DNA of 49,550 bases from an uncultured Bacteroidales bacterium. GTDB lineage: Bacteria > Bacteroidota > Bacteroidia > Bacteroidales > Paludibacteraceae. Below the pieces are notes generated by a model, which searched no databases, had not been told where the DNA came from, and saw only the letters and a program-made list of their open reading frames with translations. Below are positions 6,011 through 44,305 of this stretch, one piece after another (the first letter of the stretch is position 1; each line of letters opens with the position of its first letter). The DNA lies in NCBI GenBank assembly GCA_900318245.1, contig ONJT01000027.1, forward strand, positions 1 to 49,550. The letters run 5' to 3'. A program made the translations under genes and the position numbers.

Positions 6011-6031
6011 CTTATTGATTTTCAACCCTTG

Positions 6032-6115
6032 TGCGCAGGATGAGACTCGAACTCACACGATCTTGCGACCACTACCCCCTCAAAGTAGCGTGTATACCAA
6101 TTTCACCACCTGCGC
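6032..6115 (-). tRNA. tRNA-Leu (anticodon GAG)
   Basis: The reverse complement starts GCGCAGGTGG and ends with the T arm GAGTTCGAGTCTC, acceptor strand CCTGCGC and discriminator A; no CCA is encoded. Anticodon stem CTACT/GGTAG encloses loop TTGAGGG, giving anticodon GAG, which reads CUC/CUU leucine codons. The long variable arm is the class II form expected for tRNA-Leu. The 3' end faces the recombinase gene, making it a candidate integration target. Confidence 0.93.
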
Positions 6116-6127
6116 GGGATTTTTTTG

Positions 6128-6209
6128 TGCCCAGAACAGGACTCGAACCTGCACACCTCGCGGCATGCGCACCTGAAACGCACGCGTCTACCAATTCCGC
6201 CATCTGGGC
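6128..6209 (-). tRNA. tRNA-Leu (anticodon CAG)
   Basis: The reverse complement starts GCCCAGATGGCGGAATTGG and ends TTCTGGGCA, with a complete acceptor stem and no encoded CCA. Anticodon stem TGCGT/GCGCA encloses TTCAGGT, giving anticodon CAG for CUG codons. A long variable arm is present. It lies 12 bases upstream of the GAG tRNA, so both probably come from one precursor made from the promoter at 6285-6317. Confidence 0.93.
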
Positions 6210-21911: not shown

Positions 21912-22814
21912 TTATATAATTTTTTGTAAAATAGTATAAAATACTATGCTTTTTAGGGCCTTTTGCTTGATTTGTTGCTTCCAAGAGCTCGGTTTGTAGT
22001 CGTTTAACAGTTCCGGCGTCACGAGGCTGCGGTCCTTGAACGCATAGATCAGATTCAACCGTGCTTCGAATAAAAAGTCTTGTGCCGCTTTTGGGGTGTA
22101 ACCGACCTTTCCCGGGAAGCGCGCGTCTAACCATTTCCACATGCGGCAACGTTCTTCTTTGAGATGCAAAATAGACTCGGCACGCTTCGGTTGAGACACC
22201 GATTCATGATCTCGCCAGACGGCCGTTTGCTGCGGCAAATAGGTCCATTTTGTTTGTTGATAGAAGACGCCGTATAAGGGGTAGTCCAGCCATAGAAAAT
22301 GCTGTTCCGCAACAGCGTTTAACAGGTCTTCGGACAATAGGGACGTGCGGAAAAGGACGGTGCAGTTTACCGGTCCGGAACCATCCACGCCATAGGGTCC
22401 TGTAGCGGGTTCAAAACTCGTCTTGCCGGAACCGGATGAGGTTTGACCGTTGGTGTGCACAAACCCCACTTCCGGATGTGCACGGAGATAGTCTATCTGA
22501 AGCTGTAACTTATGCGTGTCTATCCAATAATCATCGCCATCCAGCATCGCTATATATGCGCATCCGTCCGCCATGATGCGGCGATAGAGGTCAATGGTGT
22601 TATCGGTTAAGCCGAGGTTGTGCGTGCGCCGGATATATACGATGCGGTCGTCCAGCGAGGCATAGTGTACGCACACCGCCGCGGTGCCGTCTGTGGAAGC
22701 ATCGTCACCTATATACACGCGCATCGGCTCGTCGCAAGTCTGCGCGAGCACGCTCTCGATCGCCTGCGCGATAAACGCTTCTTGATCATATGTCGCGATG
22801 CAAACAGCTATCAT
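21912..22814 (-). CDS. family 2 glycosyltransferase
   Basis: A 300-residue GT-A fold glycosyltransferase. The N-terminal half shows AVCIATYDQEAFIAQAIESV, VYIGDDASTDGTAAV (first Asp-rich motif) and YIAMLDGDDYWID (DxD-like metal site, ~residues 90-102). The C-terminal half is more variable. Family 2 enzymes build surface polysaccharide or glycolipid; the sugar cannot be named. It overlaps the upstream family 4 glycosyltransferase gene by 29 bases and is the last gene of the ssb-GNAT-GT4-GT2 run. Confidence 0.88.
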   Translation of the reverse strand: MIAVCIATYDQEAFIAQAIESVLAQTCDEPMRVYIGDDASTDGTAAVCVHYASLDDRIVYIRRTHNLGLTDNTIDLYRRIMADGCAYIAMLDGDDYWIDTHKLQLQIDYLRAHPEVGFVHTNGQTSSGSGKTSFEPATGPYGVDGSGPVNCTVLFRTSLLSEDLLNAVAEQHFLWLDYPLYGVFYQQTKWTYLPQQTAVWRDHESVSQPKRAESILHLKEERCRMWKWLDARFPGKVGYTPKAAQDFLFEARLNLIYAFKDRSLVTPELLNDYKPSSWKQQIKQKALKSIVFYTILQKII

Positions 22815-26161: not shown

Positions 26162-28252
26162 ATGGAACTCGCTTATAGAGATATTGCGTATTGTAAGAAT
26201 GTCGGCGCCAAGCGTGCCGACATTCTTCGTTCAGAGCTGGGCATTCGCACAGCGATGGACATGTTGCGCTATTATCCCTATAAGTATATCGACCGCAGCC
26301 GCTTCTACCGCATCGCGGAGATAGAGGACGAAGATACGTACGTCCAGATTGTCGGCGAAGTGACCGAATGGCATGTGACGGGAATCGGTAAGGCGCAGCG
26401 GCTGATAGCTACCTTCAACGACGGCGTGCACCAGTGCGAGTTAGTCTGGTTCCGCGGTGTGCAATACGTCAAGTTGTCCAAAGGTATCAAATACCTGCTC
26501 TTTGGCAAACCGTCCCGCTTCAACCATACGTATAACTTCGTCCATCCGGACCTCACGCCTTGGAATAAGGTGACGCCGGAAATGACGCAGGGACTCGAGC
26601 CGTACTACAACACGACGGAGAAGATGAAGCGTATCAACCTTAACTCGAAGGCAATACGGACCATCATCACCGACCTGCTGCCGGATCTTAAAGCCGGTGT
26701 GCCGGATACCATCGGAATGGATGTGCTGCAGCACCATCATCTGATGTCGCTCACGGAAGCCCTGCTTAACGTACATTTTCCGAAGGACACACGGAGTATG
26801 CAGGCGGCGCGGGCGCGACTGAAGTTCGAAGAACTGTTCTTCGTCCAACTGCAACTGCTTCGCCAGATGAAGCGGCGGGAACAGAATCCGGGTTTCCGGA
26901 TGCCGACGGTGGGAAGTCGCTTCCATGCCCTTTATCAATCCCTGCCGTTTGAACTGACGAATGCCCAGAAACGCGTCATCCGCGAGATACACGAGGACCT
27001 CAAGTCGGGACATCAGATGAACCGGCTGCTGCAAGGAGACGTGGGGTCGGGTAAGACGCTCGTGGCGTTGCTCTGTTGTCTCTTGGCGGTCGATAACGGG
27101 TATCAGACCTGTATCATGGCGCCGACGGAGATTTTGGCGAACCAACATTATGAGACGCTCAAGCACTTCTTGGCGCCGCTCGGCGATGCGGTGCATGTGG
27201 CTTTGCTTACCGGTAGCGTGAGTGCGAAGAACCGCGTGCCGATCCATAACGGATTGATGAACGGCACGATTCATATTCTCATCGGTACCCATGCGCTGAT
27301 AGAAGATACGGTGCAGTGGCAAAACCTCGGACTCGTCATCATCGACGAGCAACACCGTTTCGGTGTGGCGCAGCGGGCGAAGTTGTGGACGAAGAACGAC
27401 ACGCCGCCGCATGTGCTGGTCATGACCGCTACGCCTATCCCGCGTACCCTCGCGATGACCATCTACGGCGACTTGCGCGTGAGTGTGATAGACGAGTTGC
27501 CTCCCGGTCGAAAACCTGTTCAAACGATTCATTATCCTTTGCAAAAACGCGCGCAGGTGTATTCCTTTGTGCGTAAGCAGATAGAGGAGGGGCGGCAGAT
27601 ATACGTGGTTTTCCCGCTCATCAAAGAGAATGAGAAACTCGACCTGCAAGACTTGCAGAGCGGTTTCAACGAACTGTGCGAAGCTTTTCCGGAATACAAG
27701 ATCTCAATGGTGCACGGCCAGATGAAAGCAGCGGATAAGGATCTGCAGATGCAGCGTTTCGTGTCCGGTGAGACCCAGATCCTTGTGGCAACCACTGTCA
27801 TCGAAGTGGGTGTGAATGTGCCGAATGCGTCGGTGATGATTATCCAGAACGCCGAGCGCTTCGGACTCAGCCAGTTGCATCAGTTGCGCGGGCGCGTAGG
27901 CCGCGGTGCGGACCAGAGTTATTGTCTGCTGCTTACTCGCACTGAGTTGACCAAAGAGACACGGCAACGTATGGAGATCATGGTGGCTACCAACGACGGA
28001 TTCCGTGTGGCAGAGGCCGATCTCCAACTGCGCGGAGCCGGAGATCTCGAAGGCACGCAGCAGTCGGGAACACCGTTTGACCTGCAGATAGCCAACCTCG
28101 CTACGGATGGCCAGTTGGTGGATTTAGCCCGCCGTGCGGCGATGGAGATCCTCGATGCTGACCCGTTGCTGGAAGACGAGCGCAATCGTATATACAAGCG
28201 ACAACTGGATTTTCTCCGGCAGGAAGTACATAACTGGGGAGATATCAGTTAA
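26162..28252 (+). CDS. recG: ATP-dependent DNA helicase RecG
   Basis: A 696-residue helicase that remodels stalled forks and recombination intermediates. The wedge/OB domain is at ~60-135 (VQIVGEVTEWHV), the Q motif is FELTNAQKRVIREI, Walker A is GDVGSGKTL (292-300), motif II is DEQHRFG (395-401), motif III is VMTATPIPRTLAM, motif V is VATTVIEVGVNVPNASVM and motif VI is QLHQLRGRVGRG. RecG-specific C-terminal features include LRGAGDLEGTQQSG. The length is standard. It lies 37 bases after the tonB-like gene and may be cotranscribed with it. Confidence 0.96.
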   Translation: MELAYRDIAYCKNVGAKRADILRSELGIRTAMDMLRYYPYKYIDRSRFYRIAEIEDEDTYVQIVGEVTEWHVTGIGKAQRLIATFNDGVHQCELVWFRGVQYVKLSKGIKYLLFGKPSRFNHTYNFVHPDLTPWNKVTPEMTQGLEPYYNTTEKMKRINLNSKAIRTIITDLLPDLKAGVPDTIGMDVLQHHHLMSLTEALLNVHFPKDTRSMQAARARLKFEELFFVQLQLLRQMKRREQNPGFRMPTVGSRFHALYQSLPFELTNAQKRVIREIHEDLKSGHQMNRLLQGDVGSGKTLVALLCCLLAVDNGYQTCIMAPTEILANQHYETLKHFLAPLGDAVHVALLTGSVSAKNRVPIHNGLMNGTIHILIGTHALIEDTVQWQNLGLVIIDEQHRFGVAQRAKLWTKNDTPPHVLVMTATPIPRTLAMTIYGDLRVSVIDELPPGRKPVQTIHYPLQKRAQVYSFVRKQIEEGRQIYVVFPLIKENEKLDLQDLQSGFNELCEAFPEYKISMVHGQMKAADKDLQMQRFVSGETQILVATTVIEVGVNVPNASVMIIQNAERFGLSQLHQLRGRVGRGADQSYCLLLTRTELTKETRQRMEIMVATNDGFRVAEADLQLRGAGDLEGTQQSGTPFDLQIANLATDGQLVDLARRAAMEILDADPLLEDERNRIYKRQLDFLRQEVHNWGDIS

Positions 28253-41667: not shown

Positions 41668-42753
41668 TTACTGGTTGTTATCTTCTAATAATATATTTTG
41701 CAATTCACGTTCGAGTTGCTCGCGATCTGGCAAATAAAGTTGGTAACGGCTGACAAAAAGTTGGTTAGAGATTCCATGCAACGCATATTCCATAAGCAAT
41801 TTATCTTTTTCCGAACCAAGAATAATACCAATTGGCGGATTATCTCCTTCCGTATTCTCCTCAGCCGCAAAATAATTGAGATATAAGTTCATCTGACCTA
41901 TATCTTCGTGTTGTATTTCACCGCGTTTTAAGTCAATGAGCACAAAACATTTCAAGATACGATGATAAAAAACCAGATCTACGTAGAAGTTACGCCCGCC
42001 TATCGTAAGACGCTTCTGACGGGCAACGAAAGAGAAACCTTTGCCTAATTCCAACAAGAACTGCTCCAAGTGCGCATATAGCGCCTCCTCAAGGTCGCTC
42101 TCCTTGTAGAGAGGTTTGGTTTCTATGCCTGCAAATTCCAATACAACAGGGTCATGTAATATGTCCTGCGGCTTGGTAACCGTTTGTCCTTCTCTGGCTA
42201 ATTGCAGCACTCCTTCCTTATCTTTGCTCAGCGCAAGACGTTGAAACAGCAGACTTTTCTTTTGACGCTTCAGTTCACCGACGCTCCAATGTTCTTGCTC
42301 ACATTGATGCACATAGAAACTGATTTCAAGTGGATCCTCCAATTTCAAAATCTCGAAATAATGACTCCAGCTCAATAAGTGAGACGGCGTCTCACCTTTT
42401 TGAGCGAATAAGTGAGACAGCCTCTCATCTTTTGCGAAAGTATAGTAGAACTTCCTGATATAGAGCAGGTTACTCTTGCTATAACCTTTGCCTAAACGTA
42501 TGGTTAAATCTTTCGACAAACGATTTATCAGATTATCTCCATATTTCGCACGTGCGTTGCCGTGCTGCTCAAACTCAACGATATAGCGACCTATCTCCCA
42601 ATTGGTGTCAATTAGGATTGTATTTACCGCAGTAGCCAATTTCTGATGAGCCATTTCAACAGCTTTGCTGATATTCTCAACAAGCGTCTGGTATGCCGCA
42701 TCGTTCACTAATTGTGCGTCTGCATTTATTATTTTAGGACTCTGTTCGTTCAT
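41668..42753 (-). CDS. DUF1016 / PDDEXK nuclease domain protein (YhcG family)
   Basis: A 361-residue protein with an N-terminal DUF1016 winged-helix part (ILIDTNWEIGRYIVEFEQHG, INRLSKDLTIRLGKGYSKSN, and the LSHLF...SWSHYFEILKL region) and a C-terminal PD-(D/E)XK nuclease domain (GRNFYVDLVFYHRILKCFVL, IDLKRGEIQHEDIGQM), where D-x(n)-D-L-K gives the likely active site. YhcG-type proteins are often near restriction-modification or other defence and mobile genes; their substrate is unknown. Here no methylase or restriction gene is adjacent. I chose ATG 42753, 20 bases after the -7 box; an upstream in-frame ATG lies in the promoter. Confidence 0.88.
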   Translation of the reverse strand: MNEQSPKIINADAQLVNDAAYQTLVENISKAVEMAHQKLATAVNTILIDTNWEIGRYIVEFEQHGNARAKYGDNLINRLSKDLTIRLGKGYSKSNLLYIRKFYYTFAKDERLSHLFAQKGETPSHLLSWSHYFEILKLEDPLEISFYVHQCEQEHWSVGELKRQKKSLLFQRLALSKDKEGVLQLAREGQTVTKPQDILHDPVVLEFAGIETKPLYKESDLEEALYAHLEQFLLELGKGFSFVARQKRLTIGGRNFYVDLVFYHRILKCFVLIDLKRGEIQHEDIGQMNLYLNYFAAEENTEGDNPPIGIILGSEKDKLLMEYALHGISNQLFVSRYQLYLPDREQLERELQNILLEDNNQ

Positions 42754-42772
42754 GTCTTTGCAACTTTCGGCT

Positions 42773-42805
42773 GCAAAGTTACACAAAAAAAATGACATAC
42801 GCAAA
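42773..42805 (-). promoter_or_regulatory. promoter of the DUF1016 gene
   Basis: On the minus strand: TTTG (42805-42802), 20 bp, TAACTTTGC (42781-42773). Almost the same sequence as the promoter at 34613-34645. Confidence 0.75.
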
Positions 42806-43092: not shown

Positions 43093-43503
43093 ATGAAAAA
43101 ACTAATGATTTTAGCCATGAGCGTCATGATGGTGGCGAGCATGAGCGCACAAGAGGCAAAAGCCGAAAAGGCGGAGTGCAAGAAAGACAAGAAAGAGTGC
43201 AAGATGACGAAGGAACAGCGTGTCGAGATGGACATCAAGTACCTGACGGAAGAACTCTATTTGAGTGATGAACAGGCCGCAAAGTTTGCCGTTACCTACC
43301 GCGAGTTTATCGCTGCGAAAGAGAAGTTGAATAAGGAGTTTGCAGAGAAGTTCGGCAAGGATCTGAATGAGCGTCAGGTAGCTCGCGTACTTCATTTCCA
43401 TGGTCCGAAACCCCACGGTCCGAAAGGCGAAGGTCCGCGACCGGAATTCAAGGACGGTAAGTGCCCGAAAGGCGAAGGCAGACCCTGTCCGAAGAAAGAT
43501 TAA
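43093..43503 (+). CDS. secreted DUF4890-like protein (Spy/CpxP-like)
   Basis: A 136-residue protein with a signal peptide (MKKLMILAMSVMMVASMSAQ) and a charged helical body: KMTKEQRVEMDIKYLTEELY, LSDEQAAKFAVTYREFIAAK, then NERQVARVLHF. This resembles DUF4890, a Bacteroidetes family related in form to the LTXXQ periplasmic proteins Spy and CpxP. The C-terminus is rich in Pro, Gly, His and Lys (HFHGPKPHGPKGEGPRP) and has two Cys, perhaps metal-binding. Unusually for this genome, a strong Shine-Dalgarno AGGAGGT lies 7 bases before the ATG. A terminator follows at 43509. Confidence 0.75.
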   Translation: MKKLMILAMSVMMVASMSAQEAKAEKAECKKDKKECKMTKEQRVEMDIKYLTEELYLSDEQAAKFAVTYREFIAAKEKLNKEFAEKFGKDLNERQVARVLHFHGPKPHGPKGEGPRPEFKDGKCPKGEGRPCPKKD

Positions 43504-43508
43504 GAAAG

Positions 43509-43532
43509 AGAGGCGTAAGGCCTCTTTTTTTT
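43509..43532 (+). terminator. terminator after the DUF4890 gene
   Basis: AGAGGC, GTAAG loop, GCCTCT, then a run of T. Begins six bases after the stop codon. Confidence 0.88.
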
Positions 43533-43625
43533 TATGCCTAATAGAAAAAAGTTGTACCTTCGGACGCCGCCTGCCTAACGGCATTCCCCCGAAAATACGT
43601 TCGCACAGTTCGGGATATGGCCAGA

Positions 43626-43763
43626 TATTTTTGCCGTAAAAATGTAATTCAGGGCATGTGCCCTAAATTTTGCACAAACCTATTTGGCAGCCCCATACAA
43701 GCATGTTTCTGCCAAGTAGATTGTGCAAAATCGAGAAAAATCTCTAAAAAATTACATTTTTTT
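43626..43763 (+). ncRNA. candidate cloverleaf small RNA with its own -7 box
   Basis: Found in the 420-base gap before the str operon. A -7 element TATTTTTGC lies at 43626-43634 (the -33 is weak, TTCG near 43600). Then P1 AAAAATGTAATT (43638-43649) pairs perfectly with AATTACATTTTT (43750-43761). Within it are P2 AGGGC/GCCCT (43651-43664), P3 TTTTGCACAA/TTGTGCAAAA (43668-43677, 43721-43730) capped by TTGGCAG/CTGCCAA (43684-43690, 43709-43715), and P4 GAGA/TCTC (43733-43744). The 3' strand of P1 runs into TTTTTTT, a possible termination signal. The result is a neat four-way junction. No ORF overlaps. I cannot match it to a named RNA family. Confidence 0.5.
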
Positions 43764-43773
43764 GCAAAAATAT

Positions 43774-43805
43774 TTTGCCATATGAAAAATTTGTAGTATC
43801 TTTGC
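43774..43805 (+). promoter_or_regulatory. promoter of the str operon
   Basis: TTTG (43774-43777), 19 bp, TATCTTTGC (43797-43805). A ~110-base leader with GCGCGT/ACGCGC and GCATATGC-type palindromes follows before rpsL. Confidence 0.75.
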
Positions 43806-43924: not shown

Positions 43925-44305
43925 ATGCCTACAATTCAACAATTAGTTAGAAAAGGAAGAGCAGAACTGGTGGACAAGTCGAAGAGCCCGGCTCTTGACA
44001 GCTGCCCGCAGCGTCGTGGCGTTTGTGTACGTGTTTACACAACGACCCCGAAGAAACCTAACTCCGCGATGCGTAAGGTTGCCCGTGTGCGCCTGACGAA
44101 CTCGAAGGAGGTCAATGCTTACATCCCGGGAGAGGGACACAACTTGCAAGAGCACAGCATCGTAATGGTACGTGGCGGTCGTGTAAAAGACCTGCCGGGT
44201 GTTCGTTATCACATCGTTCGTGGTACGCTTGATACCGCCGGTGTAGCAAACCGCTTGCAACGTCGCTCCAAATACGGAGCTAAGCGTCCGAAAGCTAAGA
44301 AGTAA
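43925..44305 (+). CDS. rpsL: 30S ribosomal protein uS12
   Basis: A 126-residue protein of standard length. It has [12 protein letters not shown], the decoding-site loop [19 protein letters not shown] with the wild-type Lys associated with streptomycin sensitivity, and [20 protein letters not shown] with the second such Lys. Basic tail KRPKAKK. It is the first gene of the str cluster; the stop codon runs into an AGTTGAG heptamer repeat (44305-44332). The 212-base gap to rpsG has no ORF. Confidence 0.97.

What the first reader, a model, noticed from the sequence alone, without database searches (positions are those of the whole stretch)
43626..43763. Candidate cloverleaf small RNA in front of the str operon
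A 124-base segment forms four nested or adjacent perfect stems around one junction: P1 12 bp, P2 5 bp, P3 10+7 bp, P4 4 bp, with junction linkers of 1-5 bases. It starts 3 bases after a TAnnTTTGC -7 box and its closing stem runs into a T-run, so it has promoter, body and terminator in order. It is followed by the separate promoter of rpsL, so it is not that operon's leader. Such a complete cloverleaf without tRNA features is unusual and I do not recognise the family.
Basis: partly seen in the sequence, partly recalled or inferred. Interest (0 to 1): 0.72.

Follow-up and report, generated by a model that had tools for sequence, protein, structure and literature searches.

The report
Dispersed cloverleaf element in rpsL promoter
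The folded sequence in front of the ribosomal gene rpsL is real, but it is one worn copy of a repeated element that sits inside many promoters of one bacterial genus, apparently having inserted there and supplied a new promoter half, rather than a lone small RNA.

Summary
The cloverleaf is real (z -9.4) and has compensatory changes in relatives. It is not a one-off sRNA but a divergent copy of a dispersed element: a leading hairpin P0 (43559-43593), a TACGTTCGCA box, then a long stem closing a junction (P1-P4) that ends in the -33 half of the rpsL promoter. Two covariance models built without rpsL copies find the window copy (P0 E 2e-6; cloverleaf E 0.0012, partly re-paired). P0 occurs in 124 of 178 genomes of the genus and 12 times in this genome, but in none of 390 sampled Bacteroidales genomes outside it. 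Downstream proteins form 39 clusters. 53 of 59 copies follow 'GTA', the start of a -7 box, against 36 of 745 background sites. So elements appear inserted at -7 boxes, leaving the old promoter half behind. Wobble asymmetry suggests that the antisense strand folds, though not from the window copy alone. No mobilising enzyme was found; mobility is inferred. No Rfam match.

The parts
43509..43533 (+). Terminator-like hairpin plus T-run closing the upstream gene
   Evidence: Read from the sequence; the scan lists only its minus-strand reading
43530..43558 (+). Old promoter half ending GTTGTACC, just before P0; resembles rpsL promoter halves of relatives without the element (e.g. L039 ..AAAAAAAAGTTGTACC)
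   Evidence: GTA present; strict -33 rule not met for the window copy, met for L186 and L236
43559..43593 (.). P0 hairpin, TTCGG..CCGAA, left end of the element
   Evidence: R1 match 43550-43607, E 2.1e-6; R1 was built without rpsL copies
43596..43605 (.). Conserved box TACGTTCGCA
43615..43649 (.). P1 left arm
43651..43664 (.). P2 hairpin
43667..43731 (.). P3 long hairpin; its apex CCATACAAGCATG is identical in all four genomes that keep it (antisense reading contains GCUUG, as in other copies)
43733..43744 (.). P4 hairpin
43750..43783 (.). P1 right arm; overlaps the A/T-rich region upstream of rpsL and the -33 TTTG (43774-43777)
43774..43804 (+). rpsL promoter: -33 TTTG 43774-43777, 19 nt, -7 TATCTTTG 43797-43804 (consensus recalled)
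   Evidence: printed for 33 rpsL loci
43925..44305 (+). rpsL

Best explanation
A genus-restricted, multi-copy structured element that spreads by insertion at the -7 box of promoters. Shown: the element runs from P0 (TTCGG..CCGAA), through the TACGTTCGCA box and a foldable body (a cloverleaf around a four-way junction, or a shorter palindrome), to a right end that carries a promoter half (..TTTGTWGTA), usually followed directly by the gene's TTTGCA. The body varies freely in sequence while keeping the fold. Copies lie before many unrelated genes, sometimes in tandem. Inferred: it arrived by inserting after 'TAnn' of an existing -7 box, which strands the old promoter half to the left and gives the gene the element's own -33 and spacer. 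Most likely it moves as a folded single strand (the antisense strand) with the help of an enzyme encoded elsewhere; an antisense RNA form is possible. The rpsL copy is old: it is shared at the same place by three species in full and a fourth in part, and the window's P0 is degenerate.
For: Models built without rpsL copies find the window: P0 E 2.1e-6; cloverleaf E 0.0012 on the minus strand, next window hit 0.065. R1 and R2 find P0 and body side by side in two further places not used to build them, L045 and L050. Covariation in 11 dispersed bodies: 22 of 32 pairs changed on both sides, score 0.497 against 0.192 shuffled and at most 0.134 when slid; P0: 4 of 15 pairs. P0 in 124 of 178 genus genomes (E<=0.01), 12 in the own genome, 2 of 393 order genomes, both in the genus (E<=0.001). 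Strict pattern: 25 copies in 16 of 178 genomes, reversed control 0. GTA before P0 in 53 of 59 and a strict promoter half in 23 of 59, against 36 and 9 of 745 background sites. + strand ORF within 450 nt in 55 of 59, background 261 of 467. 45 downstream proteins fall in 39 clusters. Tandem copies 151 nt apart (L202). A 55-nt P0 unit between two identical 49-nt promoter halves (L259). Of 34 rpsL loci, 3 have P0 plus body at the rpsL promoter, 1 the body only, 30 neither.
Against: No transposition observed, no strain-level empty and filled pair, and no autonomous partner found: IS110 and Y1 transposases are not linked to copies. Element ends are not inverted repeats, and no fixed target duplication longer than about GTAnn is seen. 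Six of 59 P0 copies lack GTA and 36 of 59 fail the strict promoter-half rule, the window copy among them. The R2 match to the window is modest and re-paired: it fits P1 and P3 but lays the model's P4 on bases that belong to P1 in the window fold; P2 is not paired in R2. R2 gave no match at E<=1 in 5 of 15 sources (L188, L198, L206, L240, L255). P1's left arm is missing in G192. The rpsL right half also resembles the upstream region of relatives without the element. 54 of 178 genus genomes have no P0 match.
Confidence: 0.6

Rival explanations
1. A structured non-coding RNA transcribed leftward (antisense to the downstream promoter), present as a multi-copy family and acting in trans or on the adjacent promoter.
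For: In 35 elements, Watson-Crick-only folds of the + strand leave 49 A.C against 6 G.T single mismatches (30 against 6 unique contexts), i.e. wobble pairs on the minus strand; minus-strand energy is lower in 34 of 35 and lower beyond shuffles in 30 of 35; apices read G-CUUG-C on that strand in most bodies printed.
Against: No conserved leftward -33/-7 pair seen by eye at the right end (no search made). With P0 removed the bias is 17 to 7 on the + strand fold (p 0.06) and 21 to 6 on the minus fold (p 0.006). Copies are related, so the tests are not independent. The window copy has no preference (-73.1 against -73.2). Folded single-stranded DNA would give the same asymmetry.
Confidence: 0.2
2. 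The element is a cis-acting DNA module: the extruded cruciform (or P0 looping out) switches between the two stacked promoter halves and so regulates the gene.
For: The P1 arm includes the -33 of the downstream promoter; copies precede genes usually highly expressed (recalled), such as rpsL, glyA, metK, ppdK, tRNA-Ser and tRNA-Pro; compensatory changes keep the palindrome.
Against: Orthologous genes differ in having it, in body type or in deletions (glyA: 98 against 186 nt; L204 against L173), so no strong purifying selection per gene.
Confidence: 0.12
3. The first reader's stand-alone + strand sRNA of about 125 nt with its own promoter and terminator.
For: Strong fold and z-score; TATTTTTGC letters upstream.
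Against: Box inside a stem and not conserved; no + strand terminator flagged there (a scan that also did not list the evident + strand terminator-like hairpin at 43509-43533); family architecture starts 67 nt further left with P0; strand asymmetry points the other way.
Confidence: 0.06
4. A chance inverted duplication of the A/T-rich region upstream of rpsL with no wider meaning.
For: The right half matches upstream regions of many promoters.
Against: P2 and P4 are separate, non-complementary hairpins; compensatory changes; independent model hits.
Confidence: 0.02

Closest known systems
Putative mobile promoters (promoter propagation in prokaryotes)
   Same: Short dispersed repeats that carry a promoter and are found before unrelated genes (recalled; one search listed papers holding some of these terms, none was opened)
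   Different: Here only half a promoter is brought, at a fixed -7 position, with a conserved P0 and a foldable, sequence-variable body
REP/REPIN elements with RAYT transposases
   Same: Genome-wide palindromes; PMC2817692 (passages read) suggests selection for complementary mutations in REPs
   Different: No convincing P0 within the fetched stretches (about 1.5 kb either side) around 9 Y1_Tnp-like genes (best E 0.12); elements of roughly 100-350 nt, many with a cloverleaf
MITEs, e.g. BrickBuilt of Porphyromonas gingivalis
   Same: Non-coding, multi-copy, intergenic, with promoter activity; listed terminal repeats include AAGACCTTTGCA and CCGAAAGGTCTC (PMC4596501, passages read)
   Different: Terminal inverted repeats there, none seen here; no cloverleaf in the passages read; P0 not found outside this genus
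Rickettsia palindromic elements
   Same: Short (about 100-150 nt) selfish elements in intergenic regions (PMC4316617, passages read)
   Different: They also insert in RNAs and coding sequences according to that passage; no sequence comparison made
Integron attC sites
   Same: Sequence-variable body with a conserved bottom-strand fold (recalled)
   Different: No attC-type core sites seen by eye, no cassettes; not tested with an attC model

Membership tests
Any Rfam 15 family | Match at or above the family's gathering score | tested here: not met
   Window: only two tRNAs. Ten loci with other copies, E<=1: a DUF805b RNA at L170:310-345 and a partial tRNA at L158:1-53, both outside the element
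REP/RAYT system | rayt gene flanked by the repeats | tested here: not met
   9 Y1_Tnp loci scanned with R1, best E 0.12; only about 1.5 kb either side was seen
REP/RAYT system | GT(A/G)G head before the palindrome | tested here: inconclusive
   GTWGTA precedes P0 in many copies, but it is also the promoter spacer
MITE | Terminal inverted repeats | tested here: not met
   Left end TTCGG.., right end ..TTTGTWGTA; not complementary (by inspection)
MITE | Target-site duplication | tested here: inconclusive
   GTAnn on both sides in most copies, but it is part of both promoter halves
MITE | Dispersed multi-copy without an ORF | tested here: met
   absence of an ORF judged from element length
Putative mobile promoter | Carries a promoter to unrelated genes | tested here: inconclusive
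   39 downstream clusters and a right end that is the core promoter; movement and promoter activity not shown
IS110 / bridge RNA | Linked IS110 transposase | tested here: not met
   PF02371 in 4 of 16 genomes, none in G000 and G035, which carry many copies
Stand-alone sRNA gene | Promoter and terminator on the + strand | tested here: not met
   -7 box not conserved; no terminator flagged there, by a scan that is not fully sensitive
Stand-alone sRNA gene | Transcript of about 125 nt | not testable with these tools
   no expression data
Invertible promoter (inverton) | Inverted repeats flanking an invertible segment and a site-specific invertase | not tested
   The ACGTTCG box resembles a recalled Bacteroides motif; no search was made

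The most novel reading that the evidence does not exclude
A new kind of mobile element: a promoter-exchanging cloverleaf that targets the melted -7 region of active promoters, moves as a folded antisense strand (single-stranded DNA or RNA) whose body may be any sequence that folds, and re-equips the gene with a new promoter half each time.
Probability: 0.3. Interest if true: 0.85.

Novelty: new variant of a known kind. Interest (0 to 1): 0.6.

Why it matters
If the insertion reading is right, many promoters of one genus, including those of core genes (rpsL, metK, glyA, ppdK, tRNA genes), have been rebuilt by one small folded element, which would make promoter evolution by mobile parts directly testable in a Bacteroidales lineage. 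The covariation with free sequence turnover also marks a conserved junction structure that Rfam 15 does not list.

Tried and rejected
Simple inverted duplication of the rpsL upstream region: attractive, rejected because P2 and P4 are separate hairpins and other copies fold into the same junction.

IS110/bridge RNA: an IS110 lies beside P0 in G155 (L190, L210), but IS110 was not found in G000 or G035, and L208 and L209 show no P0 pattern. Y1/RAYT: weak Y1_Tnp matches in 9 of 19 genomes, none with a convincing P0; no control set without the element was examined. YhcG/DUF1016 nuclease: 0.8 kb left of the window copy and directly under P0 copy L256; among the P0 loci listed only these two contain it within the fetched stretch. 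Too few to claim a partner.

The G197 match is 22 nt inside what looks like coding sequence and was dropped. Viral contigs: 0 pattern matches. Plasmids: no match to one copy. Literature: the listings of searches showed no description of this element; that library lacks most subscription journals.

Errors and limits of mine: alignment A3 used wrong L070 coordinates and was dropped, replaced by A4. In one search the window element was cut short by a motif rule; one search uses its full body. In one search the right end was mis-parsed for the window copy (L258) and probably for L188 and L244, and none was found for L190; its 59 rows (57 loci) include sister-species pairs and tandem neighbours. 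The background printed (48 and 17 of 818) could include opposite arms of P0 itself; one search repeats it with 150 nt around each P0 left out (36 and 9 of 745). The structure counted was derived from the same alignment, which favours it in the slide control. In one search one measure (further pair types) did not exceed shuffles (152 of 500 as high). A2 and A5 align P2 poorly, so P2 rests on single folds and on A4.

Full report
Observation. It is part of one long imperfect palindrome, 43615-43783, whose right arm reaches the -33 of the rpsL promoter.

At rpsL in relatives. The window lies in G000, a Bacteroidales genome of a genus with 178 held genomes. DNA search with 43600-43735 gives 5 of 178 genomes at E<=0.01: the own one, G110, G130, G192, and G197, whose 22-nt match was dropped. 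G110 and G130 carry the element before rpsL; G192 keeps P3, P4 and the promoter there but has other sequence in place of the left P1 arm. Not every genome has an assembled rpsL (44 of 61). Scanning 34 rpsL loci with both models: P0 and body lie at the rpsL promoter in 3 (L038 = window, L070, L071), the body alone in L069 (G192), and neither in the other 30. Two of these 30 (L045, L050) have P0 plus body roughly 0.7-1.2 kb from rpsL, facing away from it. In the three full copies 11 of 81 predicted pairs change on both sides, and CCATACAAGCATG at the P3 apex is identical in all four genomes.

The wider family. With L071 as query, its left part (P0 and the TACGTTCGCA box) proved to be a dispersed repeat (45 of 178 genomes have some match, part of them to promoter sequence only; loci printed). 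Many copies are followed by the same cloverleaf with quite different letters, others by a shorter palindrome. A strict P0 pattern finds 25 copies in 16 of 178 genomes, none for the reversed control. A covariance model from 24 copies, with all rpsL copies left out (R1), finds P0 in 124 of 178 genomes at E<=0.01 (only 29 candidates per genome were scored, so a lower bound) and 12 copies in the own genome, the window's among them (E 9.5e-5 genome-wide; 2.1e-6 in the window). Outside the genus nothing was found: 0 of 393 order genomes for the pattern (three of the 393 belong to the genus), and with R1 at E<=0.001 2 of 393, both in the genus.

Structure under selection. Eleven dispersed bodies, rpsL left out, keep 87.6% of pairs, with 22 of 32 pairs changed on both sides; covariation score 0.497 against a shuffled mean of 0.192 and at most 0.134 when slid. 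P2 is not among these pairs. A model of these bodies (R2) finds the window cloverleaf as its best match, on the minus strand, E 0.0012, the second window hit being 0.065. The alignment fits P1 and P3 but puts the model's P4 on other bases. Of 15 further sources 10 gave a match at E<=1, among them L071 (8.9e-6), L069 (0.0033) and L070 (0.0064); L188, L198, L206, L240 and L255 gave none. The own genome's other cloverleaf copies precede glyA, a DUF4301 gene (with a shortened P3), metK and ppdK; shorter palindromes precede tRNA-Ser and tRNA-Pro and, at the weaker E 0.015-0.018, a NUDIX-like gene and an M13 peptidase.

Anatomy and insertion. In 53 of 59 P0 copies GTA, the start of a -7 box, lies within five bases before TTCGG or its variant; a stricter promoter-half rule fits 23 of 59. 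Background TTCGR sites in the same loci, 150 nt or more from any P0, give 36 and 9 of 745. The right end is usually ..TTTGTWGTAnn followed by TTTGCA, i.e. the core promoter of the next gene; 55 of 59 copies have a + strand ORF of at least 80 aa within 450 nt, background 261 of 467. From 54 elements 45 downstream proteins were obtained, in 39 clusters. Copies occur in tandem (L202, period 151); in L259 a 55-nt P0 unit lies between two identical 49-nt promoter halves. The simplest reading is insertion after the first bases of a -7 box, leaving the old promoter half to the left and giving the gene a new one. This is inferred: no polymorphic pair and no enzyme were found.

Strand. In Watson-Crick-only folds of 35 elements, single mismatches on the + strand are 49 A.C and 6 G.T (30 and 6 unique contexts), so on the minus strand they are wobble pairs. 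Minus-strand energy is lower in 34 of 35, and lower beyond dinucleotide shuffles in 30 of 35. With P0 removed the bias is 17 to 7 on the + strand fold and 21 to 6 on the minus fold. The copies are related, so these p values are optimistic, and the window copy alone shows no preference. The folded form is therefore probably the antisense strand, as RNA or as single-stranded DNA; no leftward promoter was seen by eye.

The proposed -7 box is inside P1 and not conserved, no + strand terminator was flagged there (not a fully sensitive scan), and a T-rich stretch like the right arm is common upstream of rpsL where no cloverleaf was found.

Known kinds. It resembles mobile promoters, MITEs and REP-like palindromes but fails defining tests of the last two (no terminal inverted repeats seen; no linked RAYT). 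I file it as a new variant of dispersed promoter-bearing repeats.

Noticed in passing
41668-42804: DUF1016/YhcG PD-(D/E)XK nuclease gene (Pfam YhcG_C E 1.7e-58; PADLOC PDC-S02) 0.8 kb left of the element; another YhcG gene sits directly under P0 copy L256 in the same genome.
   Followed up: partly
43093-43503: 136-aa protein with a signal-peptide-like start, rich in Lys/Glu/Gly/Pro, without a Pfam match at E<=1e-4; relatives before rpsL in 4 of the other 32 loci searched.
   Followed up: partly
43719-43804: A shared promoter-upstream pattern of the genus (about TGCAAAAT..AGAAAAAT..AAATGCATTTTTTTGC..AAATATTTGG) occurs before rpsL and other promoters, one of them a tRNA gene by eye, also without any cloverleaf.
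   Followed up: partly
L259, reverse strand: P0 unit of 55 nt bracketed by two identical 49-nt copies of a promoter half.
   Followed up: partly
L045:2648-3131 and L050:1832-2046: P0 plus cloverleaf 0.7-1.2 kb from rpsL in G084 and G082, facing away from rpsL; in L045 two P0 copies precede one body.
   Followed up: no
L208, L209, L210: IS110 copies preceded by GTAnCTTTGCA and ending AATATAGTTCGT; in G155 one lies beside a P0 copy.
   Followed up: partly
6031-6209: Two adjacent tRNA-Leu genes (GAG, CAG) on the minus strand.
   Followed up: no
21915-22081 and 26187-26229: Weak matches to the cloverleaf model (E 0.065) and to the P0 model (E 0.036), probably chance.
   Followed up: no
L204 versus L173: Same bactofilin-like gene (name by eye) in two species: one has the full cloverleaf, the other a partly deleted one.
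   Followed up: no
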